From contig OX387202.1 in NCBI GenBank assembly GCA_947561715.1, forward strand, positions 8,569,001-8,633,000: a DNA stretch of 64,000 nt, in the 5' to 3' direction. The DNA is from Ascidia mentula. Lineage: Eukaryota; Chordata; Ascidiacea; Phlebobranchia; Ascidiidae. This document shows positions 10,447-19,284 of the stretch, piece by piece. The position numbers were made by a program, and so were the translations under genes. The first letter of the stretch is position 1. Each line of letters starts with the position of its first letter. The notes beneath the pieces are model-generated. The model searched no databases. It was not told the DNA's origin and saw only the letters and a program-made list of their open reading frames with translations.

Positions 10447-13400
10447 ATGGGCGTAAAGGTGGGATTGTTCATCATAACAGTTGCCTTGCACTTGATCTGT
10501 GCAGGTAAGTTTTAAATAAACTGCTATGATATAGTGACGTATCCGACAAACCCTTTTATAACGTTGTTTTGCGCTCAGCCGCACTGCATGTATCCATGTT
10601 TTCACACACGTGATTGTTTACACACGACGAAGTGTTTAATGATTGGAAAACGTAGCTTGAATTACAAATATTAGGAAATTATTTTGTTCACATTTTACTT
10701 ATTTATTAATTTGCCCATCCCTAATTCGTGCATAAAATTAGGGTAATGTGCCCACAACACATCGTTCGTTGAGGTAGATTTAACTTGCCACGGGTTCCGC
10801 AGCAACATATTTCACCCAAAAGTATTTATTTTTTTATTGTTTGAATTGTTAACCAAATTCGGATTGACCGAGTTCTATTGTATTTGTTTCATGATTGTGT
10901 AACAAATTGGGGTTCGACGTGTTTTTAAGGTTATGAACACTAGTTTACGTCTAAATCACCGATTCTCCGTCTTATGTGACACCTTTTTGCATTATGTAAC
11001 TTAATTCTGTTTGTAAGTATAAGCACCAAATAACAAGTGTATTGCATTGCATTACATTACAGCAACCTGTATAACCGGTCTGTGTATACCACGACACAAT
11101 TGTCTTTAGGACGGGCTTAGGCTACTATTTGAAGGTTATTACTTTCAAGCACTTACACAAACTTTTTATATAATGACGAAAAGTAAAATGCCACTCAATG
11201 TGACATTATAGTTTTTTTAAAGGAAGTATAGTTTAAGTATAGTTTGTATTCAAGGGTATTGTTTGTAATGTGAAAACTAATTTCCAGAATATTTAGAATT
11301 TGACAGTGGTGAAGATGAAGTTGGCCGAAAAATCATTGGCAATCTTTGGGACAACTTAAGGTCTTTCGAAGGAAACTATTTGATACCGTATAGGCTGTCC
11401 CATAGTGTTGCAAGTAAGTTGCAATTCGTAACTTTTATGTATTATTAAATAGTGACATTTTCGGTTTGCAATTCCAATTACATGCACTTAAAGAACTTAA
11501 AACTGTATAATTTGCAATTAGCATTACAGAGGGGGTGACACAAAACTTTAAGATGCTCCAGAGCGTCATAGTTAACGTTAAAATTAAAGGTTGTTTTCGT
11601 CGGTATTTAAAAAATATATATTTCTTCAGATACACCAGAGGCCAAGAAACTTGTTAGTTCAGCTGTTCTGGACTACCATAGGAAAACGTGCATACGTTTC
11701 GTGAAATACACCCCACAACTTCATCAAGATTTAATTACGTTTGAATTTCGGCCAGAAGGAAAATGTTGGACTGCTCGCGGTCGCCGAGGAGGAAATCAGC
11801 CGGTAACTCTTCATTGAATTCACAGTTTTTCATGCAACTCTATATATTTTTATATTTAGGTATATTTTAACTTGAATTGTCCCAGGCCATTAACAGGAAT
11901 TCTTTTCTTTACGCTTGGTGTAAGTTTTAACAGATTGGGCGAAGACTTTGCAGGTGATGTAATGACAATAGGATTTATGTCATGTGAAACTACCATGTTA
12001 TAAATATTTGTTTTTTTTACTTCCAGAGTCTAAAATGCCTGATGTAATCCCATCTTCGTAAGTATAGTTATGCCAATAATGAAATGCACAAGGTTTGGAA
12101 TGAATTTGTTTGCAAATTTAAAAATATTTTCAGATCGGAGAATCGACTACGCCCACTTGCTGTTTTAATTGTTTTGAAAGCCTATAAATGTTTTCAAGGT
12201 AAACAAAGAACCACTTCCATAAAAATAAATCACTTAACTTTGTTCAACTTTTAACTAGTTCTAACTACGCAAGTCCCCACTACGAGCAAAGTGGTAAATT
12301 GTGGACAACCATATGTAAAACCACAAAACATTTGGCCAAAGGTTGTTGGAGGTGAGAGTATGTTACTGTAACGCATGCAGGATTATGCATGTCAAAATGC
12401 ATTCTGGTAACTTTTCCATAGTTATGTGATAATCGCGGACCATATATGCTAGAACCTAACTCCAAAATTAATTTAATGCTTTAAAGGACGGAAATGCGTT
12501 CCCGTAACAGTGTAAAGGAGTGATGCAACTAACGCTTAAACATTCTATTCAGGTTGTGCTTTCCGCGCAATGAGTTTTTTAGCGCATTGCGTATGCGCAC
12601 ATTCGCGTAAAGTAAGTTGAATTAAGGTGCAAATATGGCAGAGTGTGAATTCGGGTCCGAGCATATTTTTAAATTTAGGATCGAACCGTAAGAGTCCGAT
12701 CCGATTTAGAATAATGTCGTAAGAATTTGTATATCCTTGCCATTGCAGGTTATGCAGTTATACCGGGAAGTCACCCATGGCAAGTTTCGCTTCGTTTCAA
12801 AGAAAATGATTTTGCCTTTTGTGGAGGCGTTGTTATAAATGAGTGGTGGATATTATCAGCAACTCATTGTTTCTTCAGGGGGTACTCTACACGAAGTTTT
12901 GATAAAGTTTTAATTTCATTGTTCATTGAAAAAATGCAGCACAATTTAGATCAGTCTTTTATGTGGTTTTACTGGCACCGGTTCTTTCATATATTTTTAG
13001 CAGTTATATATTTTTTACATGGTACCGCTATATACCGTACAAAGATATTTTTTGTGCAAAGATCCTTGTTTTGCAGAACTGACCCTAATTTGTACGCTGG
13101 TTATGTTGGAAAACATCACATGTCACAGGTTGACCCGGGTGAAGTCCGAGTAACGTTTTCCAAACTCATAAGTCATGCAAATTTCGTTCAAGAGACCTTT
13201 CGTAACGACATAAGTTTACTGAAGGTGCGTTAACACACCATAAATACATCGATTGCCCGTGATTTCAGCATTAATGTATTTATTGTTATTAATAACTGGA
13301 CAGATTGATGGTCAAGGATATTTTATTTGATTTAGGACATCGCTGACTCGTTTTTTTTCTGTTTGACACCAATATGTTTTGTTGTTACACACGTCTCATT

Positions 13401-14376
13401 ACATACAGGTTGACAGTCCTATCGAAATGACTATCACAGTTCGACCGATATGTCTTCCATCGTCGTTGTTGGATTTGCCTACTTGGGGAACAATGTTATT
13501 GGTTACCGGATGGGGCGAAACTTTAAGTAGGAACTATTACGTTTCGCGGCATCAGTCGTTGTGACTTAAATCACAACCACGTTTCTTACATATTCCATCA
13601 ACAATTTTTTCACAGACACTGGAGACAGAAACGTTCTCAGGCAAGTTCGTGTCCCTTTATTGGATCCGTTTGTTTGTACCCTCCTTCTTCCCGCAGTTAA
13701 ACGTGGACAAATTTGCGCCGGTTACCTCAAGGGTGGAAAAGATTCCTGCCATGTAAAACTGTTTTGTCGAATTTTTATACATACTTTATTCAGGCCGTCT
13801 TATAACGGTTAACTTGTTCAGTCACAGTTTCGTTGTTTTATTTCACCTATTTTAAGATTTAAACAGATTTCTCTTGCCTAGGGTGACAGTGGTGGGCCAC
13901 TTATAGAAGAGACTGAAGCAGGAAAATACAGTTTAATTGGAATTGTATCTTGGGGAAAAAACTGTGCGGAACCAAGAAAGCCGGGAGTTTACACAAATGT
14001 AACTCAAACAGTTATTTGAACACATTGCGTTCGACTTTTACAACCTTTTCATAGTGACGATAGGTCCTAAAACTGTTAAAACTAATATATAGTCCTGCCG
14101 CTAAAATGACCACAGCGTTACCCCGGCGTTAGGAGACAAATAGTTGGCAGGTCGGTTTAAAATGGCACTCGTATAATCAGGTATATCATAAAGTCTTACA
14201 AGAACATTGACATTTTTTTACAAACTATCATTATAAGCTACTGGTATAGCTGGTAGTAATGCAATAAAAAAAACTGAAAGTAACGGTTTTTGCGTATTTT
14301 TTCATTTACTAATTTGTGTTACGAACAGGTGGCGTATTATCTGGACTGGATACTTTACACTGTGAACAGCAACTAG
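10447..14376 (+). CDS. Secreted pseudo-astacin / trypsin fusion serine protease, copy 1
   Basis: Thirteen exons: 10447-10504, 11288-11413, 11630-11802, 11860-11953, 12027-12057, 12134-12198, 12259-12351, 12749-12881, 13077-13224, 13409-13526, 13616-13752, 13882-13998, 14329-14376; 1341 nt, 446 aa, in frame throughout. Signal peptide 1-19 ([20 protein letters not shown]). Residues about 30-182 follow the astacin domain ([24 protein letters not shown], terminal AYKCF) with its four structural cysteines. The zinc helix reads [11 protein letters not shown] in place of HELMHALGFFH, and the Met-turn exon is only 31 nt. A Thr/Pro-containing linker with Cys (VVNCGQP) precedes K|VVGG and a chymotrypsin-fold domain with H253 (SATHC), D302 (RNDISLL), S395 (GDSGGP) and the S1-pocket Asp (KDSCHGD), so trypsin-like cleavage after Lys/Arg is expected. 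The astacin half should be non-catalytic. Substrate and role are unknown. Confidence 0.88.
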
Positions 14377-18200: not shown

Positions 18201-19284
18201 TTCTCCTTTCCTAAAAGTGTGCTTCGGTAAAATATATAAACATCAATGAAAACTGTGTATAAGCTGCAGACAGATGGCCACTGTTTCGACCTAAAAGGTC
18301 TCATCAGTGCAGCTGGTGTGACTATCAGACCACTTTGCTGACCAAACGGCCAAGCAAAGGCTTCCACTTTGTGGTGACTATACAATCACCGTCATCCGTT
18401 GGGCACCAAACTAGGTGCAACCTTACGAATTTACAACATGATGAAACCCATGCAGAATAACTAAACACTTGAGATTGGACATTCATAAACAAATTCTCAA
18501 CTCATTTATATCATTTAAGGTGTATTGAATCACGACAACAACCTGGTATATCCGACCAAACCATATTTTGTAGTTGCAGTTTTAGTTAAATTTTGTTGCA
18601 ACTTAAAAACCGAATATAATGCAGACACTGGAGACAGCAACGTTCTGCGTCAAGTTAACGTCCCTCTCATGGATCATGGGCTGTGCAAGTCTTTGCTTCC
18701 TCCCGTTAAGAGTGGAATGATTTGTGCTGGTTACAGGAGTGGCGGAAAAGACGCTTGCACAGTAACTAAGAAACATTTTGCTTAAAGTTAAAGTAAAATG
18801 GTCTTATTTTTGGATGAATACATTTAAGAAATGGTTAATGATACCTAATCTGCAAAACCAAACTAGTTTGTAAACTTTGTACAGGGAGACAGTGGTGGAC
18901 CACTTGTGGTAAAAAAATCAGCAGGGGCATACACCTTAGTTGGAATAGTTTCTTGGGGCATTGGCTGCGCGGAGAAGGATAAACCCGGAGTTTACACGAA
19001 TGTAAGAAATTTGATGTTCTAGCAATCAAATGCGACATAAAAGTTCTTTACCGACACAGCAGTACTTCTAAGATCGTGCTGTCTTTTCTATGTCTCTACG
19101 TAGTATACCTAACGAAAGTTGCAGATTTGTTTACGCATGTTCACCTACAGATTTTTGGAAATAAAATTAACAGCATATTTCATATTTTGCACCATTACTT
19201 TTTACAGATACGGATTGTTACGTTATTTTTTTTTAGGTTGCGTTTTACTTAAACTGGATGTCTGGAATCATGGCAAACAATTGA
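15277..19284 (+). CDS. Secreted pseudo-astacin / trypsin fusion serine protease, copy 2
   Basis: Tandem paralogue of the gene at 10447. Fourteen exons: 15277-15331, 15636-15677, 15838-15939, 16108-16277, 16533-16629, 16695-16746, 16828-16895, 17126-17260, 17377-17506, 17711-17861, 17985-18084, 18625-18761, 18885-19001, 19237-19284; 1404 nt, 467 aa. Signal peptide [19 protein letters not shown]. Astacin remnant: [28 protein letters not shown], then [11 protein letters not shown] where active enzymes have HELMHALGFFH, and [15 protein letters not shown] as the final helix. Linker [16 protein letters not shown], activation site K|IVGG, then a trypsin domain with H280 (SAAHC), D329 (EHDIALA), S416 (GDSGGP) and pocket Asp (KDACTGD). 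The last three exons (137, 117, 48 nt) equal those of copy 1 exactly. An alternative acceptor nine bases upstream (17117) would add three residues. One intron holds a hammerhead ribozyme repeat. Confidence 0.88.
18252..18427 (-). repeat. Hammerhead-bearing short repeat, intronic copy
   Basis: About 176 bases in the intron between exons 11 and 12 of the second fusion gene, nearly identical to 25909-26080 (same order: stem region, GGTCTCATCAGTGCA, AACGGCCAAGCAAA, GTCATCCGTTGGGCACC). Oriented minus; the ribozyme is at its 3' end on the minus strand. No protein-coding frame. Flanking sequences of the copies diverge abruptly at the ends, which defines the unit. Confidence 0.85.
18262..18314 (-). 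ncRNA. Type I hammerhead ribozyme
   Basis: On the minus strand: stem I 5' strand AGCTGCA, core CTGATGA, stem II GACCT-TTT-AGGTC, GAA, stem III ACAG-loop of 7-CTGT, cleavable C, then stem I 3' strand TGCAGCT. All invariant core bases (CUGANGA, GAAA, UH cleavage triplet) are present and stem I pairs 7 of 7. Predicted cleavage lies between minus-strand positions 18269 and 18268. It would cut minus-strand transcripts, so antisense to the host gene. Structure is read directly; activity is inferred. Confidence 0.88.

What the first reader, a model, noticed from the sequence alone, without database searches (positions are those of the whole stretch)
10447..19284. Fusion of a zinc-less, shrunken astacin domain to a complete trypsin domain, in two tandem genes
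Seen: both genes encode signal peptide, an astacin-like segment with the family's four structural cysteines and terminal helix, a Thr/Pro linker with a free Cys, then K|VVGG or K|IVGG and a trypsin domain with full His-Asp-Ser triad and S1 Asp. The HExxHxxGxxH stretch is replaced ([22 protein letters not shown]). Known: astacins and trypsins are separate catalytic families; I know no described protein with a degenerate astacin domain as the pro-region of a serine protease. Inference: the pseudo-astacin half, tethered by the chymotrypsin Cys1-Cys122-type disulfide (partner in RPICLP / ATICLP), acts as a targeting or inhibitory module. This is the strongest candidate for an undescribed system here.
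Basis: partly seen in the sequence, partly recalled or inferred. Interest (0 to 1): 0.9.

Follow-up and report, generated by a model that had tools for sequence, protein, structure and literature searches.

The report
Dead metalloprotease fused to trypsin
In a sea-squirt-like genome, two neighbouring genes join a shrunken astacin (zinc-protease) domain that has lost its active site to a trypsin that looks intact, so a dead enzyme seems to be reused as a handle for a live one; such protease pairs with a working astacin already exist in sea squirts and corals.

Summary
Gene 1 (10447-14376, 13 exons, 446 aa) and gene 2 (15277-19284, 14 exons, 461 aa) each encode signal peptide, degenerate astacin, Thr/Pro linker with one Cys, and a full trypsin. 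Zinc histidines and catalytic Glu are gone, and the stretch from the active-site helix Gly to the last Cys shrank from 96 to 40/47 residues, yet the four structural Cys and the exon phases of a normal astacin remain. Synonymous sites are saturated while the frames stay open: not pseudogenes.

The novelty claim is only partly right. Zinc-intact astacin-ShK-trypsin genes exist in the same genome, and 12 of 120 listed public proteins, mostly ascidian and cnidarian, carry both domains. None of those 12 has a dead astacin. Two further complete minus-strand genes (25594-24295, 22429-20539) encode the same shrunken, zinc-dead module alone, which argues that it works by itself.

Best reading: secreted zymogen, cut after Lys, with the pseudo-astacin disulfide-tethered as a docking module. 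No transcript or structure was available. Descent from the astacin-ShK-trypsin genes or a separate fusion: unresolved. New variant of a known kind.

The parts
10447..14376 (+). Gene 1: signal peptide - zinc-dead short astacin - T/P linker with Cys - trypsin, 13 exons, 446 aa
11288..12198 (+). Gene 1 pseudo-astacin exons: 11288-11413, 11630-11802, 11860-11953, 12027-12057, 12134-12198; phases 1-1, 1-0, 0-1, 1-2, 2-1
   Evidence: Pfam Astacin 38.0 bits
12259..12351 (+). Gene 1 linker exon (phase 1-1): [32 protein letters not shown], with linker Cys and activation site; only 60 bp of intron separates it from the astacin terminal-helix exon
12749..14376 (+). Gene 1 trypsin exons: 12749-12881, 13077-13224, 13409-13526, 13616-13752, 13882-13998, 14329-14376; His-Asp-Ser triad and S1 Asp present
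15277..19284 (+). Gene 2: same architecture, 14 exons, 461 aa
15838..16895 (+). Gene 2 pseudo-astacin exons: 15838-15939, 16108-16277, 16533-16629, 16695-16746, 16828-16895; same phases as gene 1 (extra N-terminal exon 15636-15677)
   Evidence: Pfam Astacin 35.7 bits; PDB astacins
17162..17260 (+). Gene 2 linker exon (phase 1-1): [34 protein letters not shown]
17377..19284 (+). Gene 2 trypsin exons: 17377-17506, 17711-17861, 17967-18084, 18625-18761, 18885-19001, 19237-19284
24295..25594 (-). W25: complete stand-alone secreted zinc-dead mini-astacin, 7 exons, 193 aa, no trypsin; exon phases 1,1,1,0,1,2 as in gene 2
   Evidence: no Pfam family at E 0.1
20539..22429 (-). W21: second complete stand-alone zinc-dead mini-astacin, 7 exons, 188 aa, no trypsin
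   Evidence: no Pfam family at E 0.1
26683..27720 (-). W27: neighbouring zinc-intact astacin ([17 protein letters not shown]), catalytic-domain exons; comparison for exon lengths and phases
   Evidence: Pfam Astacin 212.3 bits, profile 6-188 of 189
30163..31202 (-). W30: neighbouring astacin with HEIMHALGFFHE (Met-turn reads SVLQY), catalytic-domain exons
   Evidence: Pfam Astacin 205.3 bits, profile 5-188 of 189

Best explanation
Two tandem genes make secreted trypsin-type zymogens whose N-terminal half is a degenerate astacin. Shown by sequence: the metalloprotease site is destroyed, the C-terminal subdomain is cut to less than half inside its own exons while exon phases and four structural cysteines stay, the trypsin half has all catalytic residues, and the same shortened module occurs alone in two neighbouring genes. 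Inferred: the module folds as the astacin N-terminal subdomain closed by the terminal helix (C42-C198 and C64-C84 type disulfides); the zymogen is cut after Lys at K|VVGG or K|IVGG by a trypsin-like enzyme, possibly itself; the pseudo-astacin then stays attached through the linker Cys to the Cys of ICLP and works as a docking (exosite) module that brings the trypsin to a substrate or matrix, as kringles do for plasmin (analogy recalled).
For: Gene models and GT-AG introns; Pfam; PDB sequence matches; gene 1 vs 2: pseudo-astacin 161 codons, 33.5% aa identity, NG86 dN 0.75, dS 2.40; trypsin 236 codons, 55.5%, dN 0.42, dS 1.83; N-subdomain core 32 of 82 identical vs 17 of 64 for the rest; no ATG in the 60-bp intron before the gene 1 linker exon, so no room for a separate trypsin start there; distance from the helix Gly (or its aligned position) to the last Cys 96 and 96 in the two intact C72 genes vs 40, 47, 42, 40 in gene 1, gene 2, W25, W21; catalytic-domain exon lengths W30 167/136/133/82, W27 164/136/133/82, gene 1 173/94/31/65, gene 2 170/97/52/68, W25 155/73/40/79, W21 158/73/37/79 (the two 79s with stop), same phases; intact astacin-ShK-trypsin genes show that one transcript with both halves is a normal arrangement.
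Against: No transcript, protein or structure. dS is saturated, so dN/dS (about 0.31 for the pseudo-astacin) is only rough; YN00 failed on these pairs. Codon statistics give no support to gene 1 exons 4-6 and gene 2 exons 5-6. A polyA-type signal lies in the intron between the halves in both genes, 1 in 60 bp and 2 in 266 bp, against 2.34 per kb for the window. No binding partner is known; the docking role is by analogy. Public-database searches found no ortholog.
Confidence: 0.5

Rival explanations
1. The pseudo-astacin is an inhibitory or folding pro-domain of the attached trypsin: it blocks the active site or helps folding until cleavage and acts on its own trypsin only.
For: It lies N-terminal to the K|VVGG / K|IVGG activation site in both genes.
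Against: Trypsin zymogens are kept inactive by the uncut N-terminus itself (recalled, established); the same module exists without trypsin in two neighbouring genes; the Cys tether would keep it attached after activation.
Confidence: 0.15
2. The pseudo-astacins regulate the neighbouring active astacins (dominant-negative partner, substrate decoy or inhibitor trap), and the trypsin fusion brings a serine protease to the same complexes.
For: Two zinc-motif astacin genes lie within 12 kb of gene 2 on the other strand (4, 28, 67); inactive metallopeptidase homologs sometimes regulate active cousins (PMC11266112, abstract and passages).
Against: No sequence evidence for dimerisation; no expression data.
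Confidence: 0.15
3. The astacin half is a passive relic of an astacin-(ShK)-trypsin ancestor, kept only because it carries the signal peptide and linker.
For: Intact astacin-ShK-trypsin genes exist in this genome and in public data; the part behind the N-subdomain core is the less conserved between the copies; derivation from that clade is not rejected for the trypsin half (AU p 0.348, 0.189).
Against: All four structural Cys and the N-subdomain core are kept in both copies despite saturated dS; stand-alone copies of the module persist.
Confidence: 0.12
4. Two separate genes at each place: a degenerate astacin gene followed by a trypsin gene, wrongly joined.
For: A polyA-type signal in the intron between the halves in both genes; the gene 2 intron holds 2 ATG; no transcript.
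Against: The gene 1 intron is 60 bp with no ATG; phases match 1-1 in both copies; the open frames of the linker exons show no Met before K|(V/I)VGG (read by eye); the intact C72 genes splice astacin-ShK-trypsin in one chain and public proteins show it as one polypeptide.
Confidence: 0.08

Closest known systems
Astacin-ShK-trypsin proteins of ascidians (Clavelina P0001/P0002, Styela P0004, Ciona savignyi P0009) and genes C and N on contig C72 of this genome
   Same: Astacin first, CG-P type linker, then trypsin with (R/K)(I/V)(V/I)(G/N)G; same astacin intron phases (C72 gene N)
   Different: Zinc site intact, full C-subdomain (96 residues Gly to last Cys in C and N), ShK modules between, a Cys-rich module in front (antistasin-like: label recalled, PF02822 listed for P0001 and P0002)
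Cnidarian astacin(-ShK)-trypsin proteins (P0011, P0019, P0021, P0023, P0025, P0026); trypsin-Astacin association named in PMC6767649 (passages)
   Same: Astacin N-terminal to trypsin in one polypeptide
   Different: Zinc motif intact in these six (sequences); long Pro-rich linkers and/or ShK
Plasminogen and the TSP1-kringle trypsin genes of this genome (contigs C71 5.21 Mb, C73 8.38 Mb)
   Same: Best PDB match of both trypsin halves is plasminogen, linker included; C71 trypsin is the nearest by identity among the 10 other trypsins of this genome compared, 48.5 and 48.9% (41), with its open pieces cut at the same places
   Different: Kringles (Pfam 49.2 and 57.7 bits at C71, 42.1 at C73) and TSP1 (40.2 bits at C73; below cut-off at C71) instead of a pseudo-astacin; a clade of window, C71, C73 and plasmin trypsins is rejected (AU p 0.016), without plasmin it is not (p 0.252)
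Pseudopeptidases of family M12 (inactive ADAMs)
   Same: Metzincin domain that lost zinc ligands and base and was kept
   Different: Those named in the passages of PMC11266112 that I saw are ADAMs, which typically keep the Met-turn; here the Met-turn half of the domain is mostly gone and the partner is a serine protease

Membership tests
Peptidase family S1 (trypsin, PF00089) | Full-length profile match with His-Asp-Ser triad | tested here: met
   208.7 and 223.4 bits, profile 1-220 of 220 (8); triad aligned
Peptidase family S1 (trypsin, PF00089) | Trypsin-like S1 pocket (Asp189) and zymogen activation site | tested here: met
   GGKDSCHGDSGGP, GGKDACTGDSGGP; K|VVGG, K|IVGG
Peptidase family S1 (trypsin, PF00089) | Proteolytic activity | not testable with these tools
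   needs protein
Astacin (M12A, PF01400) | Sequence homology above Pfam cut-off | tested here: met
   38.0 and 35.7 bits against 22.5, N-terminal part only; PDB astacins for gene 2 (12). W25 and W21: no Pfam match at E 0.1 (48)
Astacin (M12A, PF01400) | HEXXHXXGXXH zinc motif | tested here: not met
   absent in gene 1, gene 2, W25, W21 (74)
Astacin (M12A, PF01400) | SIMHY Met-turn and EXXRXDRD | tested here: not met
   S(IVL)MHY absent in all four (74); no ExxRxDRD in the alignment; that segment is shortened to 40-47 residues
Astacin (M12A, PF01400) | Four structural cysteines (positions 42, 64, 84, 198 of crayfish astacin) | tested here: met
   positions kept in genes 1 and 2; disulfide formation not tested; pairing of crayfish astacin from PMC9848320
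Astacin (M12A, PF01400) | Pro-segment motif FXGDI | tested here: not met
   no FxGD in gene 1, gene 2, W25, W21 (74); W30 and W27 read FDGDI
Astacin-ShK-trypsin architecture | ShK module(s) between astacin and trypsin | tested here: not met
   Pfam finds no ShK in gene 1 or 2 at E 1 (8); 4 and 3 ShK stretches in C72 genes C and N
Astacin-ShK-trypsin architecture | Trypsin half in one clade with the C72/Clavelina trypsins | tested here: inconclusive
   not grouped in the best tree; holding them together not rejected, AU p 0.348 (47) and 0.189 (65)

The most novel reading that the evidence does not exclude
The zinc-dead short astacin is a new kind of extracellular non-catalytic domain (astacin N-subdomain closed by the terminal helix, most of the C-subdomain excised), with four members in this cluster: two secreted alone and two mounted on a live trypsin as its exosite. 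In one of its branches a two-protease polypeptide would have turned its metalloprotease into the targeting device of its serine protease.
Probability: 0.35. Interest if true: 0.7.

Novelty: new variant of a known kind. Interest (0 to 1): 0.5.

Why it matters
It would show that half of a metzincin catalytic domain can live on as a stable binding module and serve as the non-catalytic arm of a trypsin. The same genome holds the intact two-protease form, stand-alone dead modules and the dead-plus-live fusion, so the route from double protease to docked protease can be tested directly. Astacins are not named among the inactive metallopeptidase homologs in the passages I saw of a 2024 review (PMC11266112).

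Tried and rejected
Rejected: astacin pseudogene beside a trypsin gene (open frames at saturated dS, 60-bp intron, matching phases). Rejected: that astacin-trypsin fusion as such is new. Left open: descent from the C72-type genes versus a separate fusion; trees do not decide. The trypsin comparison is a small sample: one search gave 155 matches (150 of 400 candidates scored), of which I compared 12 trypsins; one incomplete row (C71 14.53 Mb) was dropped before the tree; for five genome rows, the incomplete Ciona savignyi row and P0011 (no domain start found by my pattern) were left out, and P0021, P0022 and P0025 were not put in. Trees of the astacin part have very long branches (gene 1 3.48, W25 4.8 changes per column) and an unsettled bootstrap; 8 of the 12 zinc-motif C72 astacins were used there. 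The first splice chain for C72 genes C and N failed at one junction; I shortened the core peptides there and it ran; the first junction of gene C is unsure. Coding statistics were weak: the summed pseudo-astacin scores are reached by 19 and 8 of 2000 random sets, but single exons of the eroded part score below zero, and random segments were not required to be open. Protein searches with gene 2's astacin half (82 candidates, none at E 0.001) and with both full proteins (120 best of 6783 listed, 0 of 120 with PF01400, swamped by multi-trypsin proteins) found no ortholog; gene 1's half alone was not searched. Species not identified; the best public relatives of C72 gene N are ascidian. Paper searches on fusion or inactive astacins.

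Full report
What is there. Two genes in tandem on the + strand encode signal peptide (by eye), astacin-like half, Thr/Pro linker with one Cys, and trypsin. Models with GT-AG introns and matching phases run 10447-14376 (13 exons, 446 aa) and 15277-19284 (14 exons, 461 aa). 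Pfam gives Trypsin 208.7 and 223.4 bits over the full profile and Astacin 38.0 and 35.7 bits (cut-off 22.5) over profile positions 6-77 and 7-91. PDB astacins match the gene 2 half, best E 8.5e-9, crayfish astacin 5.2e-8, Cys on Cys. The finding is therefore confirmed, with small corrections of the gene ends.

What has been lost. The HEXXHXXGXXH stretch reads [11 protein letters not shown] and [11 protein letters not shown]; no HExxH, no SxMHY, no FxGD pro-segment motif. From the Gly of the active-site helix to the last Cys there are 96 residues in two intact astacins of this genome but 40 and 47 in genes 1 and 2. The shrinkage sits inside the exons: catalytic-domain exons of the neighbouring full-length astacins are 167/136/133/82 (W30) and 164/136/133/82 bp (W27; Pfam 205.3 and 212.3 bits), those of gene 1 173/94/31/65 and gene 2 170/97/52/68, with identical phases 1-0, 0-1, 1-2, 2 onward. 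In crayfish astacin the chain enters the C-terminal subdomain after that Gly, and disulfides C42-C198 and C64-C84 close the domain (PMC9848320, passages). So the N-subdomain and the terminal helix were kept, and most of the C-subdomain went.

It is not decay. Gene 1 and gene 2 differ by dS 2.40 in the pseudo-astacin and 1.83 in the trypsin (NG86, saturated; YN00 failed), with dN 0.75 and 0.42. Over that distance neutral frames would be expected to break; both are open and share the four Cys, and 32 of 82 N-subdomain positions against 17 of 64 in the eroded remainder. Against this, codon statistics give no support to gene 1 exons 4-6 and gene 2 exons 5-6, and discriminate poorly even for some trypsin exons, so details there may change.

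The module also exists alone. On the minus strand W25 (25594-24295, 193 aa) and W21 (22429-20539, 188 aa) are complete seven-exon genes with the same phases, the same shortening (42 and 40 residues) and no zinc motif; W21 stops at the last Cys, W25 one residue after it. Pfam sees no family in them at E 0.1; the assignment rests on exon layout, TC(L/I)(R/K)F, the terminal helix with Cys and position in the cluster. A tree that unites them with genes 1 and 2 is not rejected (AU p 0.383) but not shown either, and the same holds for a union of all six window astacins (p 0.386). A genome search with W25 gives 6 matches at E 0.1: five of its own exons and one W21 exon; searches with the genes 1 and 2 halves find themselves, each other and zinc-intact astacins.

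The intact relatives. The 200 kb of contig C72 that I read have 12 zinc-motif astacin exons, and trypsin motifs behind 3 of them. For two, C (16264956-16271220) and N (16310332-16315550), one splice chain links astacin with HELMHALGFWHE, ShK modules and trypsin (Pfam Astacin 201.6 and 202.6, Trypsin 197.7 and 187.9, ShK 4 and 3 stretches). Both models are partial at the ends; the chain needed shorter core peptides after a first failure. The third (trypsin near 16260359-16262062, three ShK matches before it) was not modelled as a whole. A protein search with N lists 120 of 361 proteins at E 0.001, of which 12 have both Astacin and Trypsin domains: Clavelina (2), Styela, Ciona savignyi, six named cnidarians and two without a name (P0022, P0041); all 12 keep the zinc motif as read; P0009 and P0041 end inside the trypsin. 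The C72 trypsins group with Clavelina's (90/89). [quoted passage not shown] So the fusion is a known architecture; the dead, shortened astacin on it is what I did not find (papers 13, 21, 54, 55, 58, 59, 70, 71), with limited search sensitivity.

Where the trypsin comes from. Among 12 trypsins of this genome compared, the two window trypsins are sisters (96/93); the nearest by identity is a kringle-trypsin gene on C71 (48.5 and 48.9%), then C72 A (44.0 and 45.5%) (kringles by Pfam); window plus C71 is a branch of the best tree at 75/72 only. Best PDB matches are plasminogen, linker included. Union with the C72 trypsins is not rejected (p 0.348; p 0.189 with Clavelina and Styela). Whether the window genes are eroded astacin-ShK-trypsins or a second fusion is open.

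How it may work (inference). Secreted zymogen; cleavage after Lys; new N-terminus activates the trypsin; the pseudo-astacin stays bound by a disulfide from the linker Cys to the Cys in RPICLP / ATICLP; with no catalysis left, it offers a surface. [quoted passage not shown] The stand-alone copies make a binding role more likely than a private inhibitor of the attached trypsin. No experiment supports this yet.

Verdict. A real pair of genes, a new variant of a known architecture, worth a cDNA and a structure.

Noticed in passing
window 20539-22429 and 24295-25594, minus strand: Two complete stand-alone zinc-dead mini-astacin genes with eight Cys each, invisible to Pfam at E 0.1; not in the finding.
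   Followed up: yes
window 30163-31202, minus strand: Astacin W30 keeps HEIMHALGFFHE but its Met-turn reads SVLQY instead of S(I/V)MHY, so it may be on the way to inactivity.
   Followed up: partly
G000 contig C72 16315437-16315550: The trypsin of the astacin-ShK-trypsin gene N reads RDSGGP where gene C reads GDSGGP: oxyanion glycine replaced by Arg, so that trypsin half may be the dead one.
   Followed up: no
G000 contigs C71:5209501-5215500 and C73:8383001-8389000: Kringle-trypsin genes with TSP1 modules (plasminogen-like) in the same genome; Clavelina P0055 combines astacin, TSP1 and kringle domains.
   Followed up: partly
window 5667-5840, plus strand: Protein prenyltransferase alpha repeat (PPTA, 34.6 bits), probably the Rab geranylgeranyltransferase alpha gene at the left end (name recalled).
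   Followed up: partly
window 36370-39629, plus strand: Filamin repeat (29.3 bits) and a sub-threshold B-box (21.0 against 24.1), probably a TRIM2/3-like gene (name recalled).
   Followed up: partly
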